A stretch of DNA of 64,000 bases from Puccinia triticina (taxonomy: Eukaryota; Basidiomycota; Pucciniomycetes; Pucciniales; Pucciniaceae): the NCBI RefSeq assembly GCF_026914185.1, contig NC_070560.1, positions 2,409,501 to 2,473,500 of the forward strand. Direction: 5' to 3'. This document shows positions 1,482 through 64,000 of this stretch, one piece after another. How positions within the stretch are numbered: position 1 is the first letter of the stretch; each line of letters starts with the position of its first letter. The translations under genes were made by a program, and so were the position numbers. Under the pieces are notes generated by a model. That model did not search any database. It was not told where the DNA came from and worked only from the letters and a program-made list of their open reading frames with translations.

Positions 1482-2110
1482 TGTTGCCAACGCCAGGAGA
1501 AACCTCATTGGCGAGCGGGCACGAAACTGGCTCGCAGTGGAACTTTGGAGAGAAAACCCAGCCGCATGTTAAGGACCCCCAGCAAGGTTTAGAGCTCGCC
1601 AAAGAGTCATCCGCGAGCTGAGGCTTTGTATAGCCATTCCGGCAGTCCTCGGAGAGCTGAGAAGCTCGCCGGGAGTCCTTGGTGAGCAGCGCTTGACGAG
1701 CTATGTAGAGTTTTGTCATACGAAACTATAGCTCGGCCGGGTGTACATACCAGCTCGCCGAAGGAACTCAGAAATTTGGCATGGGTGCACCATCAGCTTC
1801 CGGAGACTGTAGTATTAGCCCGCTTAGCGAGGAGTATGTATCCCCCTTTCTGGCCATATATATAACACGAAAATTTGAGGACACAGATCAATTCTACTTC
1901 GAAAGAGAATCTGTCTCCCCTGGAGAGAATTTCAATTATCAGCCCTTATAATATCAGCCTAAATTTGCCAGATGACGCGCTCTGAGATTGATATCAATTA
2001 AGACTGTAAGACTCTGCAATACTACCTCTAAAGATTATTCATGCTGATGATCATGAGTACAAGCTCCATGTCGATTATTGGGACAAGCTTCGTGCTTCTT
2101 GAATACAACA
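1482..2110 (+). mobile_element. Possible solo LTR
   Basis: The stretch starts TGTTGCCAAC and could end at AATACAACA, giving the TGTTG...CAACA inverted ends typical of LTRs. It has a TATA-like CATATATATAAC at about 1855 followed by a non-coding AT-rich part. The flanking 5-mers do not match, so there is no target-site duplication to confirm it. The boundaries are a guess. Confidence 0.3.
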
Positions 2111-2293
2111 TAAGAGAAAAGTGTGTAGATGATTTAATTTTAATGTCTGAACCTTCCACCTAAAATTATCGTAGATGATACTCTGGTCCACACGAGCTTT
2201 CGGGAATTGAGAGATTTTCGAGAAGACCACACGTTACTTCCGAGGGCACAGGACTGCAATCGAGCGCGGAGCTTTTGGTTGACCCATGATGAA

Positions 2294-5090: not shown

Positions 5091-7049
5091 CTAGACCTGG
5101 ATGCGATGGCTGAGGAGGATGTTTTCGAGACGGGAGATTTCGGAGGACAGGGCGGCGTTACCGTCGGCCATCCAGACGACGAACTCGGCTGCGCGTTCGA
5201 GGACGACGGACTTACTGGCGCCGGTCTCGATCTCGCCTCTCCTTCCGCGGCCGCGGGTCTTGGGCTTCTTGGGGATGTTCTGGGCGGACATGGGTGTGGC
5301 TGAGGCGCCGGGCGGAGGCGGGTCGGGCGTGGCGATGGAGATGCCCGACTGGGACTCCCCCGCGCGAAGGATCTCCACCAGGCTTCCGAAGCCGCCCTGG
5401 ATCGCGTTCCGGCGCCGTTGCTCGGACACGATGTGCGTCGCTTTGACCGGCTTGGCGGCCTTCTTCGCCGGTCGACGCGTCGGGTCCGTCTCTCCCGAAG
5501 GGGGAGGATCATGGGGGCCGGTGGCGTCGGATGGGAAGACGGGCGAAGGGTGCTGCTCCAGTGGTGGTGGTGGGGGGGCGGGATGCGGGTAGGGCTGCTG
5601 GATGTGGCCGGGCCACTCGCCAACAGCCGGCTCAGGATTGATGCGGGTCCAGGAATGCATCTCGACGTCCGGCTCGGGCTCCGGGCCTCCGATGTGGAGA
5701 GGCACTTCGGGGAGATGGCCGGGCTGGACGAGCGGGTCGATGGAGGGCTTGAACTTCTTGCGGCGCTGGGCATCGGGCTCCGGGTAGGTCAGATGCGAGT
5801 CGGACGAGCTGGAGAGCGAGCCCGAGGTGGTCTGGAAGGATTGCAACGACGGCCGACGGAGGTGAGGATGGCCGTCGTACTCCTCCGGTGGCTCCGTCAG
5901 CTTCAGCCGACTCTCTACCGCCCGACCCATCTCCGCATCCTCCATCTCCCGCTTCCCGAAGCTCATCCCGCCCTCCCCCTCCTGCCCGCGTCCCTCCAAC
6001 CTGCGCTTCAGCTCGCCGATCACCGGCATGCCTTCCGGCATCCCTTGCGGGTCAAACTCGCATTCCCCATTCGATTCTCCCAGGATATTCAGGAACGACG
6101 AGAGTAGGTCTTGCTCGGACGCGTCGAACAGCGGCGGCGGCGTGGCCGGGTTGGGCGGGGGGTAGTGGCTCAGACTGTGTGATGACACGCAAGAAGAAGG
6201 GAAATAATGGCTGGAGTATAGTTGATTGGAGGCAGGAGGGTTAATGGACTCGATGAGGCCAGGAGGCGGCGGCGGGGCCTGGATGGAAGCGGATAGATTA
6301 GATTGCTGATTGGCAAGTGCATCGTGCAAGAAGTTGCTGAGGATCGGATCTTGAGTGAGGTGGGGTGACGGGAGCTGGTCTCGACTCCCTGGGGAGATGC
6401 CCCAGCTGCTGGGGAACGAGAGCTGGTAATCCTGCGCGTACGCGCCGCAACCACTGGTGTGGGGATATGATTGGTATACTGAGTCGGGATGGCTGGCCTG
6501 TAGATCACTGGATCCAAGGGGTAGATCGACGGGCTCGATGGCCGGAAGCGCGTATTGGAAGTCTGTAGACAGACGCGCGCGCCGGATGGAGAAAAGCAGT
6601 ACGATGGATCAGTGTGTGGATATCTTGTTGCTCATAAGCAGCTGCAATCCGGCCAGCTCAAGACGCACCAAACAGCGTCTGTTACGCAGGCCGGAAAGAA
6701 TCGGAGAGGATGGAGGACAGAGAGGCCGTTGAAGACACGCACCTTCGTAGGCGACAGGCATTGGCAACAAGGCCAGAGCCTGGGTACTCGGAAGCTGGAA
6801 GCCCTGGTCGAAGCTTTCCAGACGCAGGGAATGGGGGTCATGGTGCTGCTGCTGGTGGAGAGCGAGCGAGGTGGGCTGGTGCTGGTTGTAATCCTGCGCC
6901 TGGTGATAGTCAAGCGTCGACGGGCCACGCTGCGGATGCTGATGCTCTGTGGTATGGGGCGGGGAGGAGTGCAGGCTTGAAGATCTGTTCAACGGGCGCT
7001 CGCCCGGATGACCAGCATGGTTTGTGGACTGGATGGTACTGTTTGACAT
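5091..7049 (-). CDS. bHLH transcription factor
   Basis: The model is complement(join(5091..6562,6743..7049)), 592 residues. The ATG at 7049 opens a Gln/His/Ser-rich exon. The 180-nt intron (GTGCGT...CTACAG) joins in phase 1 to a long exon rich in Pro and Ser. The DNA-binding domain is C-terminal. The basic region at about residues 476-488 contains HIVSEQRRR, with the His-Glu-Arg spacing (H5-E9-R13) that in bHLH proteins goes with E-box recognition. Helix 1 follows at about 488-504 and helix 2 at about 553-586 (SKSVVLERAAEFVVWM), running into a short leucine-bearing coil (LSSEISRLENIL). The loop is unusually long, about 48 residues, Pro-rich and then Lys/Arg-rich. The protein is expected to be nuclear and dimeric; its targets are unknown. 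Confidence in the fold is high, in the exact exon borders good. Confidence 0.85.
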
Positions 7050-12887: not shown

Positions 12888-12894
12888 GCAGTAA

Positions 12895-13544
12895 CAGCGG
12901 TGGGCAGATATGTTACTTTACGTTACGGCAGTGAAATTGGATAACGTAACATCTTTTTAGTTATCCAAATTGGCCAGTTTGGTAACGTACAAAATTTGGG
13001 CAGTAAAGTATAGTAAAGTAACTTTTTTTTCAACCTGATTTTTTATGTTTTTGGTAACGTAACTTTTTTGATATGGGGCTTTTTGTAAAGGGGGTTGAGA
13101 TTATTGAGTAAAAGAGAGAGTTGGTATTGTGTCTTTAGCTTATAATTGGTTAAGGCTTGCCTCTCTGAGGTTAGTGATGTTCAAAGTTGTGGGTTCAACC
13201 CTCACTCTGAACAACTTTTAATCTGGCTTCCTGGCAGCATACTGAGTTTATGTGGTTGTTTAGTGTCAACTTGAGCAAACAGCTCGCTCATATTGATAAA
13301 AACAACCACAAATCAGGGCCTTTACCAGAAAGTTACACCAAAGTTACCCAAATCTGGGAAAAAATGTAACGTAACTGGTTTTGTTCAAAATAACCAGGGA
13401 ACGTAACTAGATAAAATGGAGCCCATTTTCTGCAGGAGATATCGCAACTCCAAATTAGATATCTGTAACTAGCAGATAATGTAACTGTAAAGGTTACGTT
13501 ACCCTCAGAGTTATCCATTTGGAGAACGTATCTGCCCACCGCTG
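12895..13544. mobile_element. 650-bp TIR element with 7-bp TSD
   Basis: The ends are CAGCGGTGGGCAGATA and its exact reverse complement. The flanks are GCAGTAA at 12888-12894 and again at 13545-13551, a perfect 7-bp target-site duplication. No transposase is encoded. The interior is rich in GTTACGTTAC-like motifs and contains a tRNA-like segment. The ends resemble hAT termini (CAGNGGTGGGC), but hAT elements usually make 8-bp duplications. Confidence 0.8.
13131..13210 (+). other. tRNA-like (SINE-like) segment
   Basis: A box-like TAGCTTATAATTGG is at 13136-13149 and a B-box-like GGTTCAACCCT at 13192-13202. A D arm (GCTT/AGGC around an 11-nt loop) and a T arm (GTGGG/CTCAC around TTCAACC) can be drawn. 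The anticodon arm does not form a normal 5-bp stem with a 7-nt loop and no acceptor stem is clear. I read it as a decayed tRNA-derived sequence, perhaps a SINE head, inside the TIR element, and not as a functional tRNA gene. Confidence 0.4.
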
Positions 13545-19069: not shown

Positions 19070-20575
19070 CTATTTACGCTTAGAAACTCTATAATTGTGT
19101 AAGTGAATTGCTCCGTCTGGGATATTATTTTCTGGCAGCCATTCATCTTTGTCGGCAGATTGGTTTCTGTATCTTACAAGGTACAGTCTGGTATCTTTAC
19201 CCAAGACTCTCTCCTTCTTATATTTGAGGAATATATGTACTTCAAGTTGCTCTTTAGGAGATGGTTCTTCTATGGGTGTAGGTACTGGTACGGAAGTTGG
19301 TTCATTTTCCCTCTGAACATATCTTTTTATCAGGCTTACTGGAAACACTGGGTGTTTCCTGCTAAATTCTTCTGTAAGAATTACTTCTACTGCATTTTTA
19401 CCATGTAGGTTTTTAATCACAAAGGGACCTACAAAGGTGGGTTTAAGTTTCCTACAACCTCCTAAGTTGATAAAATTTACAGTAGATAGAAGTAATTTTT
19501 CTCCTATATTGAACTCTGGTTCTTTATGACTCTTGTCCCAGCGCATCTTGCTGTACTCAGCTGCTTCTTGGACACATTTGGCCGCATGTTTATTTGTGGC
19601 TTCTAGCATTTGCTTAAAGTACAAGGCCGTAGGTTGCGACAGTGGTAATTTGTCATTAAGCTTGTCTTTTGGTAATCTGGGAATCCAACCCCTCTCTAGG
19701 ATATATGGCGCTTCCTTAGTAGTAGAGTGCTTACTACTATTATAAGCCATTTCCAGGACAGGGAGTGAATTAACCCAGTCATGTGTATACCCGTCACTGT
19801 TTTTAAATTCTAGCCCAAAGGCGCAAAAACTTCGCAGAAGATCTTCTAGTGTCTGGATCATTCTTTCTGCTAGGCCATCAGTCTGCGGGTGATATGCGGT
19901 CGAGAAGGCTAATTTGGTACCCAACATATCATGTAGATTTCTCCAAAATTCAGATGTAAACTTTGGGTCTCTGTCACTGATAATTATTTTTGGGATACCC
20001 ACTTCCGCCATGATTCTATTCCAGAATAGCATAGCTATTTCCATGGCAGTATCATCTTTGTGATGCGGAATAAACTTAGCTCTCCTGGAAAATCTATCTA
20101 CAACCACTAGGACTGAGTTATAAGAGAAGGCTCCTCCCGGAGGTAATCCTGTCACAAAGTCCATGTTGATGATTTCCCACCTAGTCTTAGGTTCAGCTAT
20201 GGTCTGCAATAATCCAAATCTTTTTCCAGTCTGTTTATTGGCTTTTTGGCATGTTTCACAGGATTTAACATATATTTTAGTTTGATTTTTCCAATCAACC
20301 CACCAGGCTGTCTGTTTAATCCGTTCCAAGGTTCTATCCTCGGAGAAGTGACCTGCGCCAGCATTGTCATGGCATTCATACAGCATATTCTTAATGTGAT
20401 TTTCTTTACTCAGGACTATCACACTGGAATGTCTATGTCTAAAGTATATTATGCCATCTAACAGAGTAAACTGTCCTGTCTTGTATGGGGTCAATAGGTA
20501 TTCTGGTAAGCTAGCAATCAATTCTGGAGCACTGTTTTCATTATCCAGGATATTGATCAACTTGAGAAGTTCCAA
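19070..20575 (-). pseudogene. Chromovirus integrase with chromodomain (3' part of pol)
   Basis: This is the 501-codon 3' part of pol. At the N-terminal side is an integrase zinc-binding domain with His residues around [10 protein letters not shown] and a CETC pair. The catalytic core follows with Asp in NMDFVTG, Asp in SDRDPKF and the Glu in LAERMIQ, in the D,D-35-E arrangement. The C-terminal 60 residues look like a chromodomain ([19 protein letters not shown]), which in related elements targets integration to heterochromatin. The frame is open through the core, but it is cut off from the RT part by an internal deletion near 20,630, so no complete pol can be made from this copy. Confidence 0.9.
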
Positions 20576-21012
20576 ATCTTCACTATAGCTGATCCTAACT
20601 TCTTCAAAGAATGCGTCATCGAGATGTTTGCAAATTTAGGGATATGTTGTCTGTAATAACTACAAAATCCCAAAAATGACTGCATTTCTGTCATTGTCTG
20701 CGGCATAGGTTTAAGCAGAACTGATGCTACTCTATTTTGATCTATGGCTAGAGATAATCCGGAGACTATATGACCTAAAGCCTTGAGCTCTTGAAAGCCA
20801 AAGTTGCATTTCTTGATTGACATTTTCAAACCTGCTGTAATAGCTGTACGGAGGACCAATCTTATTTTTTCTAAATGATCCTCCCAGTTTGTAGAATATA
20901 TGATAATGTCATCTATGCAAATCATCATCCAACTTTGTCTAATAAAGGATCCAAATATTGTGTCCATCATACGCTGAAAGTGTGACGGAGCATTTTTTAT
21001 ACCAAATGGCAT
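20557..21012 (-). pseudogene. Chromovirus reverse-transcriptase fragment
   Basis: RT motifs MPFGIKNAPSHFQ and [14 protein letters not shown] are clear. The catalytic box normally read as Tyr-x-Asp-Asp is Cys-Ile-Asp-Asp here (MICIDDIIIY), a change expected to damage activity. Directly after HIPKFANIS the frame shifts into sequence that belongs just before integrase. The RNase H and connection region (normally well over 100 residues) is therefore deleted at about 20,630. The upstream part is separated by a stop codon at 21049-21051. Confidence 0.9.
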
Positions 21013-21048
21013 CCTTAAATATTCATAGACTCCTAGATGACAGATTAT

Positions 21049-22722
21049 TCACATAAATTTTCTGCTCTCTTCTTTAATAGGTATTTGATGGAACCCTTTA
21101 AGAACATCCATTGTCGTGATGTATTTAGCTTTCGCCAAATTATGCAGTGAATGATCTATCCTTGGAATAGGATAATTGTCTGCCTTGGTGTAATTATTAA
21201 GGGCTTGAAAGTCTCCTACCATACGGGATTTATCATTATGCCATGCTATAATTACGGGCGTAGTTATTTCCACTTGTTTGTTATGGCCTACTTTCCTCAA
21301 CACCTTAAGTTCTAAAATTTCTTTGATGTGGATCTCTAAGGCTTCCCTAGACTTAGGGCTGGAAGGATAAGCGGCTCTCCGTAACGCAGGAGGGTATGGG
21401 GGCTGACACGTAAGTTCTATCTCAATGTCGTGTCCTGAGATATTCCCTATAGGTTCCTCCTTTGTGCAAAAAGCTTCTTCATGCTCAAAGCAGACTTGCA
21501 ATACATCTGATTGTTGCTCCGTAGTCAAATCACTACTAATGGCAGCCTGAGACATATAATCATGACTGAACTTGATCAGTTCTTTATTCTCATGATTTTT
21601 TCCGGGAGGATTCTGAAAGCTAATGTTACATATCTCAAACTTTCTTTTCCAATCACCACCTATAGTGTAGTATCTGTTTTTGCTTTGAATTACATCTATT
21701 CCATACAAGCAGAATGCATCATTACCTATAATAAGATAATCACACACAGCATCTTCTAGGACTACAAATTCTACGTGTAATCTCAAAGAACCTTTTGTGT
21801 GCGGAAAAATAAGAGGTAACTTAACTATCCCTATTGGTTTAAGGGCTGAGTTACAACTGCTAAATTTAGCCTTGGGCGTGGGGAGAAGATTATTCTTCCA
21901 GTCAGGGTAACAAGAGTCTAGTAAATTGGTACTAGTGCAAGAACAAAATGCCCCAATGTCTAGAAGAGCTCTGACTTCTCTCTCATCGAAGATAACTGTC
22001 GTGTAGCTAGTTTTTCCCAAAGTATAACTCATGCCTTCTTCTGGTTTATTTGTCATTAGTTTGGCATCTGATACGTGCCCAACTTCGAGTGAAGAATTCC
22101 ATTTCTGTGGCAGGTTGGAATCTCCTTGGATTACCGTGATACGCAATGGATCGCCTAGATTGGCTTGTATTACGTTGCATTTGGCATTAATTTCTGGTTC
22201 ATCCAGGCAATCTCCAACTTCAGGCTCCATACTGACAATGTCAAATTGGGAGCCCGTATCAGATAGGTCATCTTCATCTGATTCTACTTCTATATTGTTA
22301 ATCCGTTTACGTGGTTTAGGGCAATCAGGTCTCTTATGGCCTTTCTCTCCACAATTATAACACTCAATACTAGTTGGTTTTCTAGTAGGCACTTCTGCAT
22401 TCTTTCTTTCTCCAGCTGTGTTTTCTCTAGGAGCTAGATTATGCCTTTCTTTGTACGTCTTGGGTTTCCTGTCTAATTTCTTAGCCACAATAATTATTTC
22501 TATAGTGGCTACTAATTCAGACAAGTCTACGTCTGCATCTTTCAACCTGCACATCACATCATGTTCTAAGTAATTAGGGCACTTTTTCAAGATTTTCTTA
22601 GTGACAAATTTCTGAGCGGGTTGGTTATACATACAATCAATTCTTTTCTTCTGACTTAGGCACCATTTGTATGGGTCATCTTTTGTAGGATCAAAGAAAT
22701 CATTTTCATATGCGGCCAGCAT
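21049..22722 (-). pseudogene. Chromovirus Gag end, protease and RT start
   Basis: This is a 557-codon open frame. It starts in the late Gag region, has one CCHC zinc knuckle (residues 121-134, CYNCGEKGHKRPDC) and an aspartic-protease-like segment. It then enters the RT fingers (VIIAWHNDKSRMVGDFQALN, TTMDVLKGFHQ). The protease active site expected as Asp-Thr/Ser-Gly reads Asp-Ile-Gly (LLDIGAFCS, about residue 254). The frame ends with an in-frame TGA at 21049-21051 inside RT; coding continues in the same frame after it, so this is a nonsense mutation. The 5' border is a frameshift against the Gag frame at an A-homopolymer near 22,806. Confidence 0.9.
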
Positions 22723-22723
22723 T

Positions 22724-24349
22724 TTATCCTCCCAGACATCTGTACCAAACTGTTTGTGGATCAGTTTTTTCCACTCTTCCCAGCTTACTTTTCCGACAGA
22801 TTTCTTTTTTTCTGACGAACCAGTCTAAAGCTACGCCTTCAAATAACCTTGGCAATCTGGAGGTTACTACTTCATCCAAAGCTTCGTAGCACTCAAGGAG
22901 ATGATCTACGTAGTCTATGAAGTAGATATGATCATATTCTCCTTCTCCGGAGAACTTAGGCCATTCTTTCATTGGCGGCATCAGTTTGCATTTGGTTATT
23001 GGATCTAAACTATTCAAGAAAGAAGTAGTCTGTCTTGGTTGTTCCTGGTAAGGTTGGGAATCACTGGGAGCGTTTGGGTGTGGTGACCTGGTTGGTTCCT
23101 CTTCTTTAGGAGGTAGAAACCTTTCTTGGTGTTGAAACACTCTGTTCCTGTTATTTAGTAAAGGATTATTAAACCTGACATATTCCATCTGAGCAGATTC
23201 GGGGTTATGAATCATATGCGGGGGAGTGTGTATTCCAGCTACATTTTGTTTAAGAGTTTTTATCTCTTGTTTCAGAGAGCTAATTTGTTCCGTTGTGGAG
23301 ATGTTGATTTTATTTACCATCTCCTTCATGTTATCTTCCTGATGACTTACTAAGTCTATCAAGATTTGTAGTTGGGCGGATTGATGGTCTTCACGCTCTC
23401 TGTTCTCTTTGATAACCTCAGTTCTCAGAGTAGACAACATTTGACTTTTAAAGTCTGCCATATCAATGTCAATATCCGTAAGTTTGTCTAGTAGACTTTG
23501 ATTATTACTCGTCATATTCTCAAGGCTTTTTGTTATCTCACTTGTTTTACTCTTGATTTCTCCAATGTCTTGGCAAAACTCAGCAATTTTAACAAAATGT
23601 TCTTGAGACATTACTATTGCACGACTAACAGCAGATTCAAGAGTGTTAATAATAAAAGTATGACATTCCACAATTTTCTTGTTTGTAAACTTATATTGGT
23701 TACTAGAGTTACTATGCAATGTAGACAAATTTCCATACAAGTTATCAAACATATGGAAAATGAAATCTCTATCAACTACATCTGGTCGTAGGCTTGTTCC
23801 AAGGTGTTCGCTGCCTTCATGACTTGAGCCCATCTGGCGCGGTCTCTGCGGAGCTGGTTGGTTTGATCTGTTGGAGGAGCTTTTCGTTTTTTTGAAGTCC
23901 TCGCTGGAGGGGTGATCTGCTTCTTCACTGTCCAGGGGTTCCAACCCTCCACGAAGGACTCTAGTTCCTTTCGAGTGAGAAACTTCTGAGCCGCTTTTTG
24001 GCTCTCTTGAGCTCCGCGTAGAGCGGTTTTCAACTCCTCTGGAGATCCTTGAGCCTGGAAAGAGATGCATTTCCTCCAGTTGGCTCGGTGGACGTACACC
24101 AAGTTCTGGATCATCTTGACCTGCTCCTCCTCCAGCTCTTTGGTAGTTTTCACCGGAGCTTGGGTTTTCGAGGTGCTTGGAGCCGGGTCCGTGTTCTTCT
24201 TGAACCGAAGCGGGGCCTCGAAGTCCGCCGGATCCTCCTCCAACTGATCCTCCGACGACAGATCCTCCAATGGCGGACCCTTTGCGGCTGACTCTTTTCG
24301 GAGTGGCAAGGGGTCCTTCGAGGTCAGGTCTGGAAGATCGGGTAGACAT
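22724..24349 (-). CDS. Chromovirus Gag-like ORF
   Basis: 541 codons from ATG at 24349. The N-terminal 190 residues are Gly/Ser/Pro-rich and disordered. The middle (about 190-400) is helical with heptad-like patterns and ends before a Pro-rich stretch. The capsid-type region starts near PMKEWPKFSGEGEYDHIYFI (about residue 470). A homopolymer frameshift near 22,806 sends the frame to a stop; the true Gag continues in the frame of the 21049-22722 ORF. The first 530 bases are also open in another frame of the same strand (see the ORF1 entry). The ATG lies inside the last candidate intron of that overlapping gene. Confidence 0.8.
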   Translation of the reverse strand: MSTRSSRPDLEGPLATPKRVSRKGSAIGGSVVGGSVGGGSGGLRGPASVQEEHGPGSKHLENPSSGENYQRAGGGAGQDDPELGVRPPSQLEEMHLFPGSRISRGVENRSTRSSREPKSGSEVSHSKGTRVLRGGLEPLDSEEADHPSSEDFKKTKSSSNRSNQPAPQRPRQMGSSHEGSEHLGTSLRPDVVDRDFIFHMFDNLYGNLSTLHSNSSNQYKFTNKKIVECHTFIINTLESAVSRAIVMSQEHFVKIAEFCQDIGEIKSKTSEITKSLENMTSNNQSLLDKLTDIDIDMADFKSQMLSTLRTEVIKENREREDHQSAQLQILIDLVSHQEDNMKEMVNKINISTTEQISSLKQEIKTLKQNVAGIHTPPHMIHNPESAQMEYVRFNNPLLNNRNRVFQHQERFLPPKEEEPTRSPHPNAPSDSQPYQEQPRQTTSFLNSLDPITKCKLMPPMKEWPKFSGEGEYDHIYFIDYVDHLLECYEALDEVVTSRLPRLFEGVALDWFVRKKEICRKSKLGRVEKTDPQTVWYRCLGG

Positions 24350-25084
24350 GTTGTCAGTGTGGATGTTTATAAGGGGTAAGTTCTTGTAAAAAGAAATAGA
24401 CTAACCTTTGACTTCCGGTTCGGAGTCGCTAACGTCAATATCCGCTAAGTTCTTGGCGGGAGCTGGGTCTATTTCAGCTGCGGAGAACGGAGAAATTGGT
24501 CAGTAATGTACTTTTTATTTGCGGGTGAATTTGCAGGAGAGAGTTGCTTACGGGTGTCTCTTGGGTGGCGTATAGTACCGGCGATGTAGTTTGGTTTTGG
24601 CGCAGGCACTAACGTTACCAGAGTAAAACAATTATCAGCGCTACCGGCGGTGCGGAATAGAAGTAGGATAAAACGTACTAGTAGGTTTCTTCAACGGTAC
24701 GTCCACCTCTAGTTTTGGCGCAGCAGAGGCCGCGAGATTCTTTTTGGATTGGGTTTTCCGAACCACTGTAGAAACAGGAATCAGGGTTAGCGTGTATTTA
24801 ACACGGGTAGTTGAAAAGGTAGAAATTTCAAGCTCACTTTTGCGTTCTAGGCAAGCTTTAGCTTTGCGAGTGCAATGTTCACATAAGAAGAGTTGAAATC
24901 GAAGTTTTCCTTTGATACTTTCTTTTTGTTTGCGTTCAATTTGGTCGGTGGCAATCTTGAGCTGCTCGGCGTACGAAAGCTTCTCCCAGGCGGTAGGGAC
25001 GTAATTCCGGGCACGTTCTTCTCTCTGTTCTTTAAGATAACGGAGATAATACTGAATCAGTTCAGCATTTCTCTGTAATTCCAC
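23776..25084 (-). CDS. Spliced ORF1 overlapping Gag in another frame
   Basis: This is a candidate multi-exon protein. The last exon (23776 to about 24328) is open for about 180 codons in a frame different from Gag on the same strand and has a charged, helix-like composition (ANWRKCISFQAQGSPEEL, KAAQKFLTRKELESFVEG). Upstream, short coding blocks with good GT...AG borders can be linked. A block ending CEHCTRKAKACLERK precedes a GTGAGC donor. A VVRKTQSKKNL block, a short Pro/Asn block and an Asp/Glu-rich block (KNLADIDVSDSEPEVK) follow, the last before a GTTAGT...CTTCCAG intron. The Gag ATG falls within that last intron. The first exon is not found; an acceptor TTTTTCAG lies at 25085. The Cys cluster suggests nucleic-acid binding. 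The function is unknown to me. Confidence 0.5.
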
Positions 25085-53095: not shown

Positions 53096-54390
53096 GTAAA
53101 CCCAGGTACCTGCAGCAGGTCTGGGTACTGCCTGTTTTTTTCACCCAAAACAGAAACCGGGACCGGGACCGGGACATGCCTAGGTGGCCAGGGGCGGGTA
53201 CCCAGGTACTTGTTGCGGTCAACCTTGGTTTCCTACCACTAAAAAAAAAACTGTTGCTTTCAATTCCTTCCTTGTTGATGGAATCCTGTGGGACTTGAAG
53301 TTGCTCTTGATCATCTGGAGTGGGAGGAGAGGCAGAACTGGATGGGAGAGGGTATGTTGGTGAATCTGGATATTCAGGTCTCAGATTGGAGGATATGTCA
53401 TCCCCAAAAACCTGTAAACCTCCCCCACCAGGGGGGTTGCGGGGTTGTATGGCGGGTACCAGCAGATATGCCTGGGTATTGAAAAAAACACAGGAAAAAA
53501 TGGCACCCAGACCCGTACTTGGAACCCACCACTGGGTTGAGACTGGGTTGGGTTGACACGCCGGGTACCTGACCCTTTTGGGGTCTGGGGCCAGGTTTGG
53601 GTTGGCTTTTGTCTCAAAAACTGGTTTTTGACCCACTAGATTTTTGGGTTAGGTTTGGGCAGCCTATTTTCTAATTGGGTTGGCCTGTGACCCAACTGCA
53701 ACACCCCCAACAGTAAATTTGGTTTTTTTTTGGCGCCTAATAGGTTGGGTCAACCCAAGACCCATTGGGTCATCCCAAGACCCATTGGGTCATCCCAAGA
53801 CCTATTGGGTCATCCCAAGACCCATTAATGGGTCATTCCAAGACACATTAATGGGTCATTCCAAGACACATTAATGGGTCATTCCAAGACCCATTAATGG
53901 GTCATTCCAAGACCCATTAATGGGTCATTCCAAGACCCATTAATGGGTCATCCCAAGACCCATTAATGTGTCATCCCAAGACCCATTAATGGGTCATTCC
54001 AAGACCCATTAATGGGTCATTCCAAGACCCATTAATGGGTCATTCCAAGACCCATTAATGGGTCATTCCAAGACCCATTAATGGGTCATTCCAAGACCCA
54101 TTAATGGGTCATTCCAAGACCCATTAATGGGTCATTCCAAGACCCATTAATGGGTCATTCCAAGACCCATTAATGGGTCATTCCAAGACCCATTAATGGG
54201 TCATCCCAAGACCAATTGGGTCATCCCAAGACCAAAAACCAACCCAACCCAAAACAGTAAGATGCTGGGTTGGGTTTGGGCAGCATATTTTCAAATCTGA
54301 CCCAACCCAACCTGACCCGCACTAAATTCCTGGTTGGGTTTGGGCACTGTTTTCCAACCCAGACCCAACCCAGTTTCATCCCTAGCCTAG
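53096..54390. repeat. Repeat-rich block with hAT-like GGGTTGGG motifs
   Basis: Contains CAGGTACC/GGGTACC repeats (53,100-53,580), GACCGG triplet-like repeats, and CCAACCC/GGGTTGGG motifs in both orientations like those at the ends of the hAT element at 60147-63011. It surrounds the palindrome array and probably derives from nested non-autonomous DNA elements whose ends I cannot fix. Confidence 0.5.
53752..54236. repeat. Tandem array of 16-bp perfect palindromes
   Basis: Three to four 20-bp units (CCCAAGACCCATTGGGTCAT) are followed by about 17 units of 23 bp. Each of the latter holds the perfect palindrome GACCCATTAATGGGTC and a linker ATTCCAA or ATCCCAA. A few units carry GACACATT or TTAATGTGTC changes. 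Confidence 0.95.
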
Positions 54391-55206: not shown

Positions 55207-56582
55207 AATTCTGGATCCAACAACAAAGAAGACATTGATGTCATTGATGAGTAACTCAACTCATTACACTATTACTTTTTTTCTTTCCTAGTACACAGTT
55301 ACCTAACCTACTGAACATTTATTCCACCTCTACTAGTCTGATATATTTTTAGAGGTACAATTTCCATTTTTTTTATTATTATTCTTGGTATGCCACTGAA
55401 AACATAACTTAGTTGTCAGCAAGAGGGTATTTTAAGATTGATCAGCCCATATGTACTACCTGCATGCTTATACTTTGCTATGCTTCTACTAAGTAGCCCA
55501 GTGATGTGTGAGAGGAGTTGAAACAGAGATGAGTAACTGAATGACAAAAAGAGAAATAGGAAATGGTACACAATTACTATTTAGGCTAACATTTAATTAG
55601 ATTTCATATAGGTTTTTAACTTTGACTATCACTACATAACTGGTTGACAAGTATGCTAATACTGAGAACTCAATAGGATGTATAGTAAAGTGACCTTCAC
55701 AGCAATTTTTCAAGATGTGTGACAGAGTTCAAAACAGCAACAATGGGCCTTTATTATACAGACTAGAGGCCAAGGCGGCTTTGCCACTGCAAGGGTAATT
55801 TGCTGTAATTAACTAGTCCAAGCACATACTTCCAAGAAGTTCAGTGGAAATCTCCTATAGCACCAGATCAGCGCTATGGGGGAGGTCACCAGCACTTCTA
55901 AGACTGCAGGCCTGTACCATAGCACAAAATCTCAATTTCTGAATTCACCATCAATTCCAATTTCTTGCCAAAACACAAGATTACCACACTTGGCTATGTC
56001 AAAATCAGTGGCCAAGAATCATGAAGAAAAACATATGGTACACATTTCACATTTTTGATTGGAAAATTGGATTCACAGCCTGGTAATAGTATTCCTAAAA
56101 AATTGGTGTACAGCTCTGAAATCAACAAACTACCCTTCTGGAAACCCAAAGTGTAGACCAGAATATTTGTGTTGACACTTCTAAATGTGCTATTATGCTG
56201 CATAAATATATTTTCATGGTTTGTGTTGTTGAGGAAAGTAGGACATTTTCACCTGGGTTTTCAATCAAATTAGCAAAAAAAGGTAGGAAATAAAGAATAA
56301 AGGGAAACTCAGGGTGAAGAAGATCATTGCCTGATTAGGTCAATACGACTGTGGACTGTCTTTGAAGGAGATCCAAAGGTTGCCGCATGGAAAAAGGAAA
56401 AAAGACTGCTTACACGGTAAACCCTTATATTAGAAATCAATCATCTGCTTGCAGAATTTCATTGTCCAAATGATTGATCAGTTTGACTTTGATATCTGTT
56501 TTATCTTTGCAAAAAGCACATCTAAGACAAATTTAGCTTCTATGGCCATGCCAACCTGGGAGGAATTGAAGAACAACGGATA

Positions 56583-57011
56583 TCAATTAGCATCACAAGC
56601 AGGATTCAATTGACAAAGGGGATGACCAATGATGACCATTTCTAGTTCTCCTCTGATGAACCCACAGCAAATCTGGCTGTCCCACATGCCGCCAACTGAG
56701 ACCGCGGCAGGTCTGGGGTTGACTTGTGCACCAAGAGTGTCTTCAGGAAATTTGACAAACTCAGCGAGGACGTTCTTTTTGAAGGAGAGGGTAAATCCAA
56801 GCAAGCCGCTTGTCACTTGTGGGTTGCGGCTGGCATGAGGCGAGTAGCCCAGGAACATTTTGAAGGCTACCTTTGACACCACCTCGCCCACCTCGCGAAA
56901 GTTGCTGCATCGCGACAGCAAGGACCGCGCTAGGAGATCTATCCGTCTGGTTGATTTGTTGTATCCCCTGTGTAACGTGCCAATCACATGAAAAGAATGA
57001 ACTTTACACAT
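56583..57011 (-). pseudogene. BET3: BET3 (TRAPP subunit) gene fragment
   Basis: A 142-codon open frame in which RIDLLARSLLSRCSNFREV continues into GEVVSKVAFKMFLGYSP. Later come GFTLSFKKNVLAEFVKFPED and CCGFIRGELEMV. This is the core of Bet3/TRAPPC3, the TRAPP vesicle-tethering subunit, in the right order. The N-terminal strand region and the C-terminal end of the family are missing. An insert (TLGAQVNPRPAAVSVGG) sits where the family has a short loop, and the conserved glycine pair region is altered. It lies wholly within the 55738-59049 element, so it is best read as a captured, partly degraded copy and not as the cellular BET3 gene. Confidence 0.7.
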
Positions 57012-58198
57012 GAAATCTCTCTTATCTCTGCGCGCAAGAACGCTGAGTTTTCCCGATTTCCCGATTGCCCTATCTATTCCAGAGTTCGCTTGGTTGGTTT
57101 CTTAGGGCTCATCACTGCCAGTGGCTCTGCGTTTGTTTCTTTCAGACAATTTGTTTTTGAGTGCTTCTGTCGCCGCTGAGCATCAGGCAGGGCAGGCGCC
57201 AAGGAGAATGTCATTGTGGGTGGAGCAGGCTGGGTCCACCTGTTTGCCTGGCTCAGCTTGGCGAGCAGCGCAGGCAACAACAGCGCCAGCTAGGATTCTA
57301 CACGGCGCATCGCAATGTGAAGCCAATACTTCATCCAAACCCCAATTGGCACGAGTTAGTTGGGGAGAGGATGGTGTGGCGCACGGGTGGGCAGGGGCCT
57401 GGTTGGATGACGCTGTGGCTGACGAGTTTAGAAAATGCTCGGTTCACCCAGCCTGCTCTTTGATGGGATGTACGTGTAGGGGTTAAACTCGGCAATGGCT
57501 ACAGTTGCAGTAGAGGTTGCTTAGGACATGAGGGAGTACGGAAGAATGGCTTGTATGTTGGCAATGGTTGTTAGAAGCCGACGAAGTGATGTTTGGTTTA
57601 GCCACATACTCATGGAGTTTGTGAGACGAGGTGGGGAGTGTGTCATGGCAATAGTTGGGATGCACCAGCACTTGAGGCGATGAAGAGCGCGGGATATAAA
57701 TACGGGGGGTGAGTCAACAGTTTTTGCCTCAGGCAATTCCTCCAGCTGCAATTCCAGTCGCGAGTTGCCTCAACCCCCTCCGCTGTTGCACTTGCGCAGT
57801 CTGAGGGGGCTTCATTCGGTGGCCCCCCTTCTGCATAATGCCTTTGCGGCGCGCTGGGGGTCATCCTCCCACTGTTTTTTAACCCTGCTAGACAGGGATG
57901 GGCAGTGGGCCACGGTGCATCAGCTTGCTGATGTTGGGTGGCTTGGTGGGGGTTACTTTTTGGCAATTTTATCTTTTTTTTGTAGGTATTAGATCTTGTA
58001 TCATTTGTTTTGTAAAGGGGAAACCCTTGACTTTTTTTTGTGATTTTTGTCAATTTGTAGGGGAAACCCTTGAAGTTTTGGTTTCATGATTCACAGGCTT
58101 TAATATACTTGGATATTGGTATAGTATAGTTATCATAATTTTTCTGGTCCAATAACAGTACTGTTATTTCCATTTTCCGTAATGAATTTTCAATACTA

Positions 58199-58396
58199 AG
58201 GGTGTTCAAAGTTGAAATCATATTTTTTTCAAATCATAAAATCATAAAATCATAACACTTTTGAGTGATCATTTTTTATGTACCATTTTAGAATTGTTGC
58301 TCTTTTTTGAGTGATTGGGTGTTACACATTTTTTTCAGATTAAAATTTTATGAATTTATGGTGTTATAATTTTATGCAGTCAACTTTGAACACCCC
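58199..58396. mobile_element. 198-bp MITE
   Basis: Ends are AGGGTGTTCAAAGTTGA and TCAACTTTGAACACCCC, with candidate target duplication TACTA at 58194-58198 and 58397-58401. The interior is AT-rich with three AAATCAT units. Termini resemble those of the 14280-16587 element. Confidence 0.65.
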
Positions 58397-58537
58397 TACT
58401 ATATCCAATTACATGAGGTTTTTTTTTTTTTGAAAATACTATATCCAAATGAAGGAAGAAATAGAAAAAATCTCAATACTATACTGGCCAGATGTGGCCA
58501 GTAGTAGTACCACTACTCAGTAGGGATGAAAGTCTAT

Positions 58538-58875
58538 CTATTTCTTGGGCTTGGGGATCAGAGCATCCAAAGCCTTTACGGCCTCGGCAAAGTCCCTGAG
58601 AGGGGAAAATCCTGAAAAATTCACATAAGGCTTCTGAAGGATTTTGAAGTAGTTGAAGGGAACAGACAACCACGCCTGGAGCCACACACGTCTGCAGCCA
58701 CAGAGAACAATCTCTCAACAGAACAAGACCTACCTGGTGTTCCTAAATAAGCCCTTGCTATTACCGCAAGGACCAGGTAGGTGTCATGGTTTGCCTGCAC
58801 AATCATCAGGAGCCCAAATGTCATTGCCTTATGTTTACACCTGGTTAAGTGCGTTATTGCGGTAACCAGGGGCAA
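58538..58875 (-). pseudogene. hAT transposase dimerisation-domain remnant
   Basis: The minus strand reads YLVLAVIARAYLGTPGRSCS then VERLFSVAADVCGSRRGC, the conserved C-terminal hAT dimerisation block (x-S-x-x-x-E-R-x-F-S). A frame change follows, and the end DFAEAVKALDALIPKPKK lies in another frame with a TAG at 58538-58540. The rest of the transposase is absent. It is the only trace of mobility protein in the 55738-59049 element. Confidence 0.7.
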
Positions 58876-59622
58876 AAAAAATTACTATACCTGTATTTTT
58901 TGTTTCACAGAAAAACCACAGAATAATATACAGGCCACTTACAGCAAGGGCCAATACTAGTACAGTTATTAGTATAGGGTGGTACAACCAGACCTATACA
59001 ATAACAGAAAGGCCCGGTTATAGTAGAGTATAGTATAGGCCCATTGTTGAAAACAGTCTTATGGTAAACTACTCCACTTCTTGACTATCCTGGTGTGCCC
59101 AAAGACCATGTGAATAATTATGCGGGTGATGTAATTGGGGTTTATTGCAACTGACTCTTGAATTGCTTGGTATGTAACTTGGCATAGCAACCATCCAAAA
59201 GAGCACTAAACAAGCCAATTAAAGGAATTGATATTCAAAATCTGAAGAGGAAGAAGAGAATTTTTTTCTGATTCTGATGGCATGCTTATGATGGTGTTTA
59301 TAACATGGACCAGAAGTGACTGGCAAAACCTTCAAAGAAAAGGAATAATTATGATGGGAGACTCAAGAGGAGAAAAGGTGGAGATCATCAGATCTCTTGG
59401 GACACCAGAAAAGAGAAGAAAATGAGAGAATGAAGCACAAGAGATAGAAATGGCAGGAGGAAGAGAAGGGGGATGGGGAATAAAGAAGCAAAGAAGAAAC
59501 CAAGAGATAAATAAGATAAGTCTCCTTCCTCAGTTGACGGAAAGGGGTACCTCAACATGGCCATCAGGTGTCAAGGGTGGACAGTCTCTTGTAAGCAAGG
59601 AAGTGCTGGTCCTGGACCGTAG

Positions 59623-60030
59623 CAACAATGGGAGGTTACGCTACCAGTAATTTTAGTGTAAAAAAAACGTAACGGAATCCGTGCCATTATTGTTACAATA
59701 ATGGTGGCAATGCTTCCATTAATTTTTCTTTAAATTTTTTCCTTCTATTCTGAGCCTTATTACGTTATCCCTTGCATTTGTAGGAGGATAACCTGCGCAA
59801 AAAAGGGGAGTATCCCCCCTTTTATGGCATTTTTACCTCTGATAACGAGGTTAATGCATTATCTCCATTATTTTTCCCGGTATTGAGGGGGAAACCAACC
59901 TCTGTTACTTTACCCACCAGCCCAAAGAGCAATATTGCCAGATAACGGTGACACATTATCTGGTATCAGCGGGAAGTTACGTTACAGAAATCCCTCTGGA
60001 TATTGTAACATATGTAACTTCCCATTGTTG
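59623..60030. mobile_element. 408-bp TIR element with 7-bp TSD
   Basis: Ends are CAACAATGGGAGGTTAC and the complement GTAACTTCCCATTGTTG. Flanked by ACCGTAG at 59616-59622 and 60031-60037, a perfect 7-bp duplication. No coding capacity. Interior GTTAC/GTAAC and GATAACG motifs recall the 12895-13544 element. Confidence 0.85.
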
Positions 60031-60146
60031 ACCGTAGTCATGGAAAAGGACAAGGTTAAGGATTGGTGGGGCTGATGAGCCAGAGGGACATTATGCCGGC
60101 GGAACTCATTCTCATTCTTTATCTCAGCAACAATGGCAGCACCAAC

Positions 60147-63011
60147 TCAGGGTGTAAACAGGTCGTCTTTGGGCCAGACAACAGTGCCTAAACCCAACTC
60201 AACCTTTTCATTGGGTTGGGTTGGGTTGGGTTAAGGCGGATTTGAAAATATGCTGCCCAAAACCAAACCCAACTTGGGGGTTCTTGGGTCTGGGTTGGGT
60301 CACCTCAGGTCTGGTTTGACCCAAGCTTTTTGAGCCAATTATAGGAAATTTTATGGCTCATGTATTTTTCCTAGGTATTTAAACTTGTATTCTATCATAA
60401 CAAAGTATGATACTATATTGAAAAAGGGAAATAAAATAAATTATTCTATCACATGTACCTCTTCCTCATCATTCTCCTCAATGTCGTTGAAGGCGTAGAG
60501 TCCCTCCTTGCTTTTTATCCAGTCTTGTCTGCAAACAGGGGCTTTGAGGGTGTCTGGTTTCATTTTGGTTTGATAGTCGCTTAATATTTGGCCACTGGTA
60601 GAGAACACCGACTCAGATGAAATCGAGGTCATTGAAGTCATCAGTACTCTTTTTGCAAGGGTTGAAAGAAGCAGAAATCAAGCCGCATTGTCGCTCCACC
60701 ATGTGAGGATTTGAAATCTTGGAGAAGAAATTCCAACTGGTGGTTCCTGAAGGTAGAGGTCAAGCTCAGCCGTCAAAGAAGAAGTATCAATTGTCTTCCT
60801 TCCTGCAAGATACTTCTTGTAACACTCCCTTTCCTTGTCTTCCGCAGTGTTTTGTGTGTTTGATATTTGTAGATTGGGTTTGCAAGAAGGATCAGACTGT
60901 TGGCAAGATCACTTGGCTTCAAACACCTTGTTAAACCAAGCATATACTTCAAATTTTATTTCTTTTACAATTTCTTTAGCTTTGATTGATCCAAGTTTTT
61001 CCAAGAGAAGGAATTCAATAAGCTCCAACTTGCACCAAGGGTTGAAAACAAGGCTGACTGCCGCCAAATCCTTCAGTTTTGACCATTATTTATCATACTT
61101 TGCTTGCATTGGGCCAATAACCTTGTGGATGTGAGCAGGTCCCAACTTTGCAGCTTCCTTCAGATGTCAATCAATTTTTTTCATGATCTTGAAGACATTG
61201 TGTGCAGTTGGATGATGAGTCATCCCAAGCTTCAAAGTTGCTGATGATAGAAAAACAAACACAATCAGCAAATCTGAGACTTCAGTAGAATTTGGTCTTG
61301 AAGAAATACCCCGTACCTGTCTTGAACAACAAAAGAAATTCACACATTGTAGATATATTTCTGCCCAATTGTTTGTACTAGGGCAAGAGGTGAAGTTGAC
61401 ATCAGTGATTGATAAGTTATCAAGTGCTTTTTGATACAGAAGCGGATTTGAGCATGTTGTGGGTGGAATTCCAGCGAGTCAGAACATCAACAGACGGGAG
61501 CGCTTGCTTTTTCATATTGACGAGATCAATTGACTCCTGGAATGATTGCTTCCGCAATGGAGAGCTCTTTGCGTACCAATCAGTCTTGCAGATCTTTGAT
61601 ATTGCCTTTGAAACATTCTGGAGGCCGTCTTTAACAACTAGATTGATCACGTGAGCGCAACATCAGACATGGAAAAACTTTCCATCCAAGGCCAAGGGAC
61701 AACAGCTGCAATCTTGAAGAACCGACAAGAGTCAATCTACTGCACTGTTGTTTGAGGCGGAATTGTCAACGGCGATGAAGCTGACCTTGTCAAGGATCTT
61801 CCATTCAATAATGGTCAATAGGAGCTGTTCGGAAATTGCAAATCCAGTGTGAGCTGTAACTTCCTTAAACAATATCAAGCGCTTTTTCAGAGTCCAGTTG
61901 TCCAAGATGAAGTGGCAGGAGACTACTATGAACAATAACTGATTGGACAATGTCCAAAGATCAGTTTTTAAGGCAACATGATCAGCTTTTTTGAGCTCTA
62001 GCATGAACTTGACCTTCATGGATTTATACATCTGTATTACATCCATCTTAACAGTACCGCAAGTGCAGATTTTGAACCGTGGCTGAAGAGAGGCAACAAA
62101 TGCTCAAAACATTGGATGATAAACTAGGGTGAAAGGTTGCTTGTGTGCAATTATCATCTTGATCAATAATTTGCGGGAGGTGTCTTGACAAAAAACCCAA
62201 TTTGAGGTCAATGTTGAGCCTTGACCAAATTTGAGTAGTGCTTGCTTGCTCTTGGTCAGATGAGAGCTGCATTGATTGAGGTGGTGCCACAGGTGATTTG
62301 TGCCATTTTGAATTCTACCTTCCAATTGTCCTTTGCAGGCCTTGCACACTGCCTTGACTTTGTCACCTGAAAAAAATATTAGCAGAATGTTAGAATCATT
62401 GAGGATTCATGATCAAGCTGAAATTTCTGAATCCATATCCATGGACCATAATAATGGAAATACTGATGAGACTGACCGTGAGTTTCCTTAGTGAAATGAG
62501 ACCATACAGTGCTTGTGGTATTTTGTTTCTTCTTTTTGGAAGCTGCACCTTCTTCAGTGAGCTTGATATCAGCAGTAGTGGCCGTTTTGTTCCGGTCAGA
62601 GCAAGTCTTTTTTGAAGGAGCTGGGGTTTCAGTGGCCATAGAATCTTTGGTTTTGTGCCCAGATGCTGGTGGTTGAGACTTGGAAGCCAAAGAAGGCTGT
62701 TCGTCTGGACCAAGCAATCATATTCACTTAGAAGCTCTGGTGAATCTTGCCATTGGTTTGGACCTGGGTGATGGTGTGGAAGCTGGTGAACATCAGGCAG
62801 CAATTGAAGTCTACAACTTTGGGACATAGTCAGGCTTTTTGGGCCAACCCAACAAGAGAAAAGGGTGCCCAAACCCAACCCAAGGATTTTCAGAGATGGG
62901 TTGGGTTGGGTTTGGGTCAGCCTATTATCACTCAAAGTGTGTCCAAAACCGCCCCAAAACCCAACGGGTCTTGGGTTGGAGCCAGGTGGGCCCAAACCAT
63001 TTACACCCTGA
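60147..63011 (-). mobile_element. 2.9-kb hAT element
   Basis: Ends are TCAGGGTGTAAA and TTTACACCCTGA, with GGGTTGGG-rich subterminal zones on both sides. The flanks GCACCAAC (60139-60146) and GCGCCAAC (63012-63019) form an 8-bp duplication with one difference. A decayed hAT transposase lies between on the minus strand. Confidence 0.8.
60441..62717 (-). pseudogene. hAT-family transposase pseudogene
   Basis: Blocks in order on the minus strand match a hAT transposase. A BED zinc finger has STVWSHFTKE, then across an interval VCKACKGQLE and GTNHLWHHLNQC. A catalytic-side block has ALKTDLWTLSNQLLFIVVSC and KILDKVSFIAVDNSASNN. Then come INLVVKDGL, DVLTRWNSTHNML, and the C-terminal dimerisation block SSESVFSTSGQILSDYQTKM. 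They fall in different frames with stops between them (for example near 62,048, 61,732 and 61,420), so the gene is dead. The transposase would have cut and pasted this element in the nucleus. Confidence 0.8.
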
Positions 63012-63208
63012 GCGCCAACCACCAGCTCAACCTTTGTCCCAGACCTTCAAGTGCCTGTTCCCACTGCAGAGGAATTTTGTGAACTAGGAGTGAGAGCCAG
63101 ATCTGGACGCAATTGATATATCAACATATTTTTGAATGAGGGTAGCACTTGCAGAGGCTGCCCCTGCACAATCCCAAACATCTCACAAAAATTGGTTCTT
63201 TGTCCTAC

Positions 63209-63660
63209 CAACGGTGGGCCACTACGCTATTTCAGCGCGACGCGTTAGCGTAGCGGCAAAAAGCGCCCGCCAATTTTGAATAGCATTAGCGCGCTGTTAG
63301 CGCCGCTACGCTGCGCTAATTTTCAGCGGCGCTAACAGCGCGCCAAGTCTTTGTTAGTTTTAGCGCGCCGCTACAGTCGCTAAGCTACAGCGCTTTTAGC
63401 GGAAAAACAGGCCTTTTTTCCGCTAAAAGCGCTGTAGCGCATCGCAGCGCGCGCTCTTTGGCGCCCTCTGCATTTAGTGTTAGCGCAATTGCTTACATCT
63501 GCGCTAACGCTATGCTAACAGCTAAATTAGCTGCGCACCCTGTGCGCGTAGCGTTAGCGCGGAGACGGCACAATTCCACTAACGCTATGCTAAAATGTAT
63601 CGGAATTCCGCTACGCCACGCCACGCTAACGCTACGGTTAGCGTAGCTGGCCCACCGTTG
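63209..63660. mobile_element. 452-bp GCGC-rich TIR element with 7-bp TSD
   Basis: Ends are CAACGGTGGGCC and GGCCCACCGTTG, followed inward by CTACGCTA-type repeats. Flanked by GTCCTAC at 63202-63208 and 63661-63667, a perfect 7-bp duplication. The interior is made almost wholly of GCTAAC/GTTAGC, GCGCTA and AGCGC motifs in both orientations, giving many possible hairpins. No coding capacity. Confidence 0.85.
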
Positions 63661-63667
63661 GTCCTAC

Positions 63668-64000
63668 CAACACAATCAAAAATTGAATCAAGGCTATGTG
63701 AGCCAATTCCCTCTATCTAGAGCTAATGATATTTATAAGGCCCTGTTTGGCACCAATATAAATATCCAAGTTTATTGAATTCACACAATCCTGGTGCCTC
63801 AGATCCAAGTTTTGGTGTGTGTTCTTTAGCAAAAAACCCTCCAAAACACCTCCTCAGACCACATTGTAAGTCAATGATCTCACAAAACCCAAAAAACCGT
63901 TGAAAATATTCCCCAAACACTTCATGAGAAGCACCTTGGAATGACCCTCCAGCCTGTGCCGCAGCAACACGCAAAAAAGTGTTGGTCAAATTTCAAATCA
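63668..64000. other. Window end, no gene seen
   Basis: An 88-codon open frame on the minus strand (63723-63989) shows no family features. The region may be part of another repeat. Confidence 0.35.

What the first reader, a model, noticed from the sequence alone, without database searches (positions are those of the whole stretch)
55731..59056. TIR family with CARCRRTGGG ends and 7-bp target duplications
Four elements in one window (12895-13544, 55738-59049, 59623-60030, 63209-63660) have inverted ends CAGCGGTGGGC, CAACAATGGGCC, CAACAATGGGAG and CAACGGTGGGCC. All are flanked by exact 7-bp direct repeats: GCAGTAA, AAAACAG, ACCGTAG and GTCCTAC. hAT elements normally give 8 bp, and the true hAT copies here (54677, 60147) do give 8. 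Four independent 7-bp duplications with one terminal consensus argue for a distinct transposase specificity. A hAT-like dimerisation block in the longest copy suggests a divergent hAT group.
Basis: partly seen in the sequence, partly recalled or inferred. Interest (0 to 1): 0.85.

Follow-up and report, generated by a model that had tools for sequence, protein, structure and literature searches.

The report
Rust-fungus hAT7 transposons, 7-bp duplications

Summary
Observation confirmed. All four window elements have CARCRRTGGG inverted ends and exact 7-bp duplications. Related, uninterrupted sites elsewhere in the genome carry one 7-bp target copy for each of the four. Of 38 end-pairs selected without using the duplication, 28 have an exact 7-bp repeat, 5 have 7 bp with one mismatch, 5 have neither, and 0 have an exact 8-bp repeat. 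CARCRRTGGGCC occurs 1,377 times genome-wide against 34 for the reversed control. A 4,015-bp copy with such ends encodes a hAT dimerisation domain; it and two sister copies all have 7-bp duplications. Two copies of another hAT lineage in this genome have exact 8-bp duplications.

The genome is Puccinia triticina. Kojima 2025 (PMC12730594) already defines "hAT7", hAT elements with 7-bp duplications in Puccinia including P. triticina. So these are non-autonomous members of a known group.

Correction: the "longest copy" (55738-59049) is a short deletion derivative interrupted by a 2,351-bp Helitron-like insertion (55763-58113) and a 198-bp element. Modest extra: the target pattern is nYnnnRn, one base shorter than Hermes' nTnnnnAn.

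The parts
12895..13544 (.). E1: 650-bp non-autonomous element, ends CAGCGGTGGGCAGATA
   Evidence: Ends 19 of 20 identical, 7-bp repeat GCAGTAA; no match to the L091 transposase pieces better than E=0.26; 14 places match the 300-bp joined flanks over their whole length at 96-98% (40 of 1,329 candidates scored), 5 sites fetched and read
12888..12894 (.). E1 target duplication, left copy GCAGTAA
13545..13551 (.). E1 target duplication, right copy GCAGTAA
55738..59049 (-). E2: hAT7 deletion derivative of the ~750-bp CAACAATGGGCCTWTA family, interrupted by two nested insertions; element orientation is minus (3' end at 55738)
   Evidence: alignment to ~750-bp copies; empty site in L101
55731..55737 (.). 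E2 target duplication, left copy AAAACAG
59050..59056 (.). E2 target duplication, right copy AAAACAG
58538..58794 (-). Remnant of the last hAT exon (dimerisation domain, VERLFSVAADVCGSRRG); frame broken in this copy
   Evidence: PF05699 E=2.2e-5 on the open piece 58624-58881; match to the last exon of L091 at E=1.4e-22; alignment of 30 copies
55763..58113 (-). Helitron-like insertion (2,351 bp) nested in E2: 5' TC, 3' CTAG, between A and T, no target duplication
   Evidence: Related cargo without E2 ends on C1; the same 3' end is followed by T here and at five other distinct places
58199..58396 (.). 198-bp inverted-repeat element nested in E2, flanked by TACTA
59623..60030 (.). E3: 408-bp non-autonomous element, ends CAACAATGGGAGGTTAC
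   Evidence: 7-bp repeat ACCGTAG; no match to the L091 transposase pieces better than E=0.14; empty sites in L101 and L102
59616..59622 (.). E3 target duplication, left copy ACCGTAG
60031..60037 (.). E3 target duplication, right copy ACCGTAG
63209..63660 (.). E4: 452-bp non-autonomous element, ends CAACGGTGGGCC
   Evidence: 7-bp repeat GTCCTAC; no match to the L091 transposase pieces at E up to 1; empty sites in L101 and L102
63202..63208 (.). E4 target duplication, left copy GTCCTAC
63661..63667 (.). E4 target duplication, right copy GTCCTAC
60147..63011 (.).

Best explanation
The four window elements are non-autonomous members of the rust-fungus hAT7 group. A hAT transposase from full-length copies (about 4 kb) elsewhere in the genome recognises CARCRRTGGG ends, cuts the element out and inserts it into target DNA with strand cuts 7 nt apart, so that repair leaves 7-bp duplications. 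Shown here: the ends, the 7-bp length, empty sites, full-length copies with such ends and a hAT dimerisation domain, and a Y/R-symmetric target (nYnnnRn). Inferred: that this transposase, or a close relative, moved the short copies in trans, and that the 7-nt spacing reflects active sites set one base pair closer than in 8-bp hATs.
For: 28 of 38 pairs exact 7 bp, 0 of 38 exact 8 bp. Empty sites with one target copy for all four window elements. Full-length copy L091:1243-5257 with 7-bp repeat GCAAAGC; two sister copies whose end positions were predicted from it and then fetched: GCGCTAA and CATGAGG, both exactly 7 bp. PF05699 E=2.1e-11 in the full-length copy; a profile of this exon and nine relatives matches Hermes transposase, E=8e-7. 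Two hATs of another lineage in the same genome give exact 8 bp; the lineages separate 100/100 in the domain tree. hAT7 with 7-bp duplications is in print for Puccinia including P. triticina.
Against: E1, E3 and E4 show no match to the L091 transposase pieces better than E=0.14, so their link to the hAT7 transposase rests on ends and duplication length. 5 of 38 pairs have neither an exact nor a one-mismatch 7-bp repeat. Of six translated pieces of L091 only the last has a Pfam match above the curated cut-off; the RNase-H match (PF14372, E=0.0014) is below its cut-off and the rest were read as hAT by eye. No activity was tested. Only one full-length family was read; identity with any published hAT7 family could not be checked (supplement not readable here). 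Only 2 copies of the 8-bp lineage were measured cleanly; a third with both ends at hand, C4:6514344, has no clean repeat in register.
Confidence: 0.95

Rival explanations
1. They are ordinary 8-bp hAT elements whose border was misread by one base, so that one base of the duplication was taken for an element base.
For: hAT elements normally give 8 bp (Kojima 2025; Hermes).
Against: Flanks 8 bp long match exactly in 0 of 38 pairs, the 4 window elements included. The empty sites read show no one-base shift at the junction: E1 in 5 of 5 sites (by eye), E2 in 1, E3 in 2, E4 in 2 (by alignment).
Confidence: 0.02
2. Another superfamily with 7-bp duplications (for example some P or Dada elements, recalled) moves the short elements, and the hAT domain in E2 is an unrelated passenger.
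For: E1, E3 and E4 have no match to the hAT pieces. Papers on Galileo and on Dada transposons hold the phrase 7-bp target site duplication (search listing only).
Against: A full-length copy with CARCRRTGGG ends, and three of three 7-bp duplications in its family, carries a hAT dimerisation domain. The ~750-bp family of E2 carries the last hAT exon between such ends in many copies. The ends resemble hAT ends (recalled).
Confidence: 0.03
3. The ~750-bp copies keep the hAT dimerisation domain because they make a small repressor (like the P-element KP product, recalled), so part of the family is under selection as a self-regulator.
For: Many of the listed copies keep an open frame of about 100-114 residues; pairwise dN/dS over 30 copies is 0.72 in the coding frame against 1.03 and 0.94 in the other frames.
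Against: The bootstrap interval reaches 1.04. 19 of 30 copies hold at least one stop before the end when read through, and copies sharing a 16-bp deletion (5 of 30) or a 1-bp deletion (6 of 30) have multiplied. The fragment starts in an intron tail, as expected for an internal deletion.
Confidence: 0.05

Closest known systems
hAT7 (Kojima 2025, PMC12730594)
   Same: hAT transposase, 7-bp duplications, Puccinia including P. triticina (section 3.1.2 read)
   Different: Kojima's 20 Puccinia families carry a TET/JBP gene, with TET-free ones reported from P. striiformis and Melampsora; the translated pieces of the full-length copy read here gave no TET/JBP match and the window copies are non-autonomous.
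hAT5 and hAT6 (Kapitonov and Jurka 2007, cited in PMC12730594; not read)
   Same: hAT groups with a duplication length other than 8 bp
   Different: 5 and 6 bp, placed by Kojima in another part of the hAT tree
Hermes, a canonical 8-bp hAT (PMC10368747, PMC2803484; passages read)
   Same: Dimerisation region matched by profile search; target with T at position 2 and A at the mirrored position, here Y and R
   Different: 8-bp target nTnnnnAn against 7-bp nYnnnRn here
Other hATs of the same genome with TAGGG ends and ASESAFST motif
   Same: hAT superfamily, same host
   Different: Exact 8-bp duplications in the two copies with clean ends, separate clade

Membership tests
hAT superfamily | hAT C-terminal dimerisation domain | tested here: met
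   PF05699 E=2.1e-11 in L091:4092-4997 and 2.2e-5 in window 58624-58881, both over the cut-off; profile matches Hermes chains
hAT superfamily | RNase-H-fold catalytic domain | tested here: inconclusive
   PF14372 at E=0.0014, 19.2 bits, below its cut-off of 27; the pieces further upstream gave no Pfam match over a cut-off
hAT superfamily | Short inverted ends beginning CA or TA (feature recalled) | tested here: met
hAT superfamily | 8-bp duplication (usual, not obligatory: 5, 6 and 7 bp groups exist) | tested here: not met
   0 of 38 exact 8-bp; exceptions stated in PMC12730594
hAT7 | 7-bp duplications | tested here: met
   28 of 38 exact, 3 of 3 full-length copies examined, empty sites
hAT7 | hAT transposase in the full-length element | tested here: met
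   dimerisation domain and relatives; catalytic part only by eye
hAT7 | Host in Pucciniales | tested here: met
   window protein 100% identical over 97% to a Puccinia triticina record; longest contigs of two P. triticina protein clusters equal C3 and C8 in length
hAT7 | Phylogenetic placement inside Kojima's hAT7 lineage | not testable with these tools
hAT7 | TET/JBP gene (only in the TET+ subset) | tested here: inconclusive
   PF12851 found nothing in the genome but also nothing in the 14 controls; the six translated pieces of L091 gave no TET match
Helitron (nested insertion in E2) | 5' TC, 3' CTRR, insertion between A and T, no duplication (features recalled) | tested here: met
Helitron (nested insertion in E2) | Rep/helicase protein in autonomous copies | not tested
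   no search made

The most novel reading that the evidence does not exclude
hAT7 is not merely a different number: its target pattern nYnnnRn (consensus near CTANTAG) is the known hAT pattern nTnnnnAn with one central base pair removed, so the transposase keeps the same contacts at both target edges while its two active sites sit one base pair closer. The duplication lengths 5, 6, 7 and 8 of hAT groups would then reflect the geometry of the dimer, and closely compared 7- and 8-bp lineages living in one genome would let one find the residues that set it.
Probability: 0.5. Interest if true: 0.4.

Novelty: new member of a known kind. Interest (0 to 1): 0.22.

Why it matters
It independently confirms, with empty sites, that a hAT lineage in a rust fungus makes 7-bp duplications, shows that its ends are frequent in wheat leaf rust (1,377 exact matches of one end pattern; the 38 pairs examined span 145-3,312 bp), and gives diagnostic ends (CARCRRTGGG) for annotating them. 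The 7-bp and 8-bp hATs in one genome make the question of what sets the length of a target duplication testable by comparison.

Tried and rejected
Rejected: 8-bp duplication with a misplaced border. Rejected: E2 as a long intact copy; its 2.35-kb interior is a nested Helitron-like insertion, because a related C1 locus holds the same interior without E2's ends and 25 loci carry the same element end uninterrupted across the insertion point (up to 4 mismatches; two pairs of these loci overlap). I first read the interior as flanking DNA captured by use of an alternative end and dropped that. Rejected as unproven: selected mini-repressor.

Led nowhere: TET/JBP family search (no match, controls silent too); exact CAGGGGTGTAAAC search for 8-bp comparators (3 matches only); search with TAGGGATGGCTATYGGGCGGG (10 matches, no two close enough to be one element's ends); paper searches for 7-bp hATs before the right wording was found. 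In the free search for 8-bp comparators 10 candidate pairs were listed: 2 have exact 8 bp, none exact 7 bp, the rest are chance pairings or unclean. In the domain tree the suffix _8 was given to 14 rows of the second lineage, but only L048 of those rows had its duplication measured (L033, also measured, was not in the tree).
Full report
The window. It is G000:C3:2409501-2473500 of a 122.8-Mb genome in 18 contigs. A window protein is 100% identical over 97% of its length to one recorded for Puccinia triticina 1-1 BBBD, in a protein cluster whose longest contig has 8,806,656 bases; a weaker hit named PtA15_8A235 [Puccinia triticina] lies on a contig of 7,485,535 bases. These lengths equal those of C3 and C8. 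The genome is therefore the wheat leaf rust fungus, probably haplotype A of isolate Pt15 (the isolate is inferred from the record name).

The observation. All four elements exist as described: E1 12895-13544 (650 bp), E2 55738-59049 (3,312 bp), E3 59623-60030 (408 bp), E4 63209-63660 (452 bp). The first 20 bases of the two ends agree at 19, 18, 16 and 13 positions. Exact 7-bp flanks are GCAGTAA, AAAACAG, ACCGTAG and GTCCTAC, and no eighth base matches. CARCRRTGGG occurs 8 times in the window, only as these 8 ends.

Genome-wide test. CARCRRTGGGCC has 1,377 exact matches against 34 for the reversed pattern. I used 90 loci fetched by the end pattern (30), by PF05699 (30) and by similarity to E2's domain (30), plus the window, merged to 79 stretches and 318,939 bp, and paired ends by their own sequence. 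A loose end pattern gave 82 left-like and 94 right-like ends and 38 pairs; unpaired ends were not assessed. Of 38 pairs, 28 had an exact 7-bp repeat and no other exact length between 4 and 10; 5 had 7 bp with one mismatch; 1 had two mismatches (C1:694240, outer ends of two adjacent copies paired by the script); 4 had none; 0 had exact 8 bp. Four of the 28 are the window elements; two others are one target sequence seen twice in what looks like duplicated DNA, so 27 distinct targets remain. Wrongly paired flanks matched at 7 bp in 3 of 1,406 cases.

Empty sites. Joined flanks with one target copy were searched in the genome. E1 lies in a repeat: 14 places match all 300 bases at 96-98%, and one more at 69% (in which 40 of 1,329 candidates were scored); five sites were fetched and read by eye, all of the expected length with one target copy, differing from GCAGTAA at one or two bases. 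E2, E3 and E4 are all absent from a related segment on C6 (L101), and E3 and E4 from another (L102, which does not reach E2): each aligns without a gap at the junction, with one target copy, AAAACAG for E2, ACCTTAG or ACCATAG for E3, GTCCTAC for E4. For the L091 element several Copia-like places cross the joined junction without change of length, for example C8:417423-417642 (220 bases for 220, 82%); these were not read.

The full-length copy. A search with E2's 86-residue open piece found copies with longer open frames. The stretch C1:2767800-2773900 (L091) holds a 4,015-bp element at 1243-5257 with identical 20-bp ends CAACGGTGGGTCGCTACTTT and 7-bp repeat GCAAAGC, inserted in Copia-like sequence (Copia by eye). 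Its open pieces read by eye as a multi-exon hAT transposase; only the last carries a Pfam match over a cut-off, PF05699 at E=2.1e-11. From its length I predicted the ends of two further copies and fetched only those: C8 with GCGCTAA and C13 with CATGAGG, again exactly 7 bp. Homologues of the last exon number 20; 17 carry an organism name, and all 17 are Puccinia. A profile of ten sequences, this exon and nine of those homologues, finds Hermes transposase among solved structures at E=8e-7. The last exon matches E2 at E=1.4e-22; E1, E3 and E4 have no match to any of the six pieces better than E=0.14. Whether any copy is active was not tested.

Control within the genome. Another hAT lineage, with the motif ASESAFST and TAGGG ends, gives exact 8-bp repeats in two copies: TATCCAAC (C1:2319593) and AATCAGAC (C2:4728921); a third with both ends at hand, C4:6514344, shows no clean repeat in register. 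The two lineages separate at 100/100 in a tree of 21 dimerisation domains; of the second lineage's 14 rows only one (L048) had its duplication measured.

Target preference. Of 27 distinct 7-bp targets, 26 have a pyrimidine at position 2 and 23 a purine at position 6 (binomial P 4e-7 and 3e-4 against one half); the symmetrised consensus is close to CTANTAG. The three full-length copies, not in that set, have C, C, A at position 2 and G, A, G at position 6. [quoted passage not shown] The 7-bp pattern looks like the same contacts one base pair closer; this is inference.

Anatomy of E2. The ~750-bp copies run from one end, through the tail of the last intron and the last hAT exon, to the other end; the relatives lack the intron stretch. 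E2 is such a copy with two later insertions. A 2,351-bp segment (55763-58113) sits between A and T, begins TC and ends CTAG on the minus strand, and leaves no duplication; the same 3' end is followed by T in the window and in seven other loci, three of which overlap (five distinct places). The C1 place 2857567-2870724 matches this segment, with a gap of about 10.5 kb, and lacks the E2 ends. These are the marks of a Helitron (recalled). A 198-bp inverted-repeat element flanked by TACTA (58199-58396) lies in the remainder.

Is the small retained domain selected? Over 30 copies pairwise dN/dS is 0.72 in frame (bootstrap 0.55-1.04) against 1.03 and 0.94 in the other frames, but 19 of 30 copies hold a stop before the end and shared frame-breaking deletions have multiplied. 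I read this as a weak trace of ancestry, not a working repressor.

What is known. Kojima 2025 (PMC12730594; abstract, section 3.1.2 and passages read) describes 20 TET/JBP-bearing hAT families from six Puccinia species, P. triticina among them, with 7-bp duplications, names them hAT7, and mentions TET-free ones in P. striiformis and Melampsora. The Repbase paper of 2015 (PMC4455052, passages read) uses extraction of hAT families annotated with a 7-bp TSD as a worked example. The window elements and the full-length copy meet the hAT7 features that could be tested; placement in Kojima's tree and the TET/JBP question stayed open. Whether these particular families are catalogued could not be checked. 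A search of the held papers for hAT7 with transposon listed six papers; by title only Kojima's is on this group.

Verdict. A correct and well-judged observation whose central claim is already in print. Added here are the empty-site proof, the frequency of the ends in this genome, a full-length copy without a recognised TET/JBP domain, the target pattern, and the corrected anatomy of E2; I did not check each of these against the unread supplement or Repbase.

Noticed in passing
window 55763-58113: Helitron-like insertion (5' TC, 3' CTAG, A/T target) nested in a hAT7 copy; its 3' end recurs at other places and a related copy on C1 is itself split by about 10.5 kb.
   Followed up: partly
window 58199-58396: 198-bp inverted-repeat element with AGGGTGTTCAAAGTTGA ends flanked by TACTA (5 bp); superfamily not determined.
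   Followed up: no
window 55600-63800 and L101, L102 (C6): Two related segments on C6 lack E3, E4 and the 60147 element, and the longer one also lacks E2, so the window segment seems to have taken four insertions since it split from the C6 copy.
   Followed up: partly
L062-L090: A family of about 750-bp hAT7 deletion derivatives keeps the last transposase exon; copies with the frame broken by shared deletions have multiplied as well.
   Followed up: yes
window 19070-24400: Retrotransposon-like reading frames (integrase and reverse transcriptase motifs by eye) on the minus strand.
   Followed up: no
window 53800-54200: 23-bp tandem repeat CATTAATGGGTCATTCCAAGACC.
   Followed up: no
L008 (C1:694240-694915): Two short CARCRRTGGG elements lie side by side with a single 7-bp stretch between them (flanks GTCTTAT, GTCCTAT, GTTCTAT), as if one inserted at the other's duplication.
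   Followed up: no
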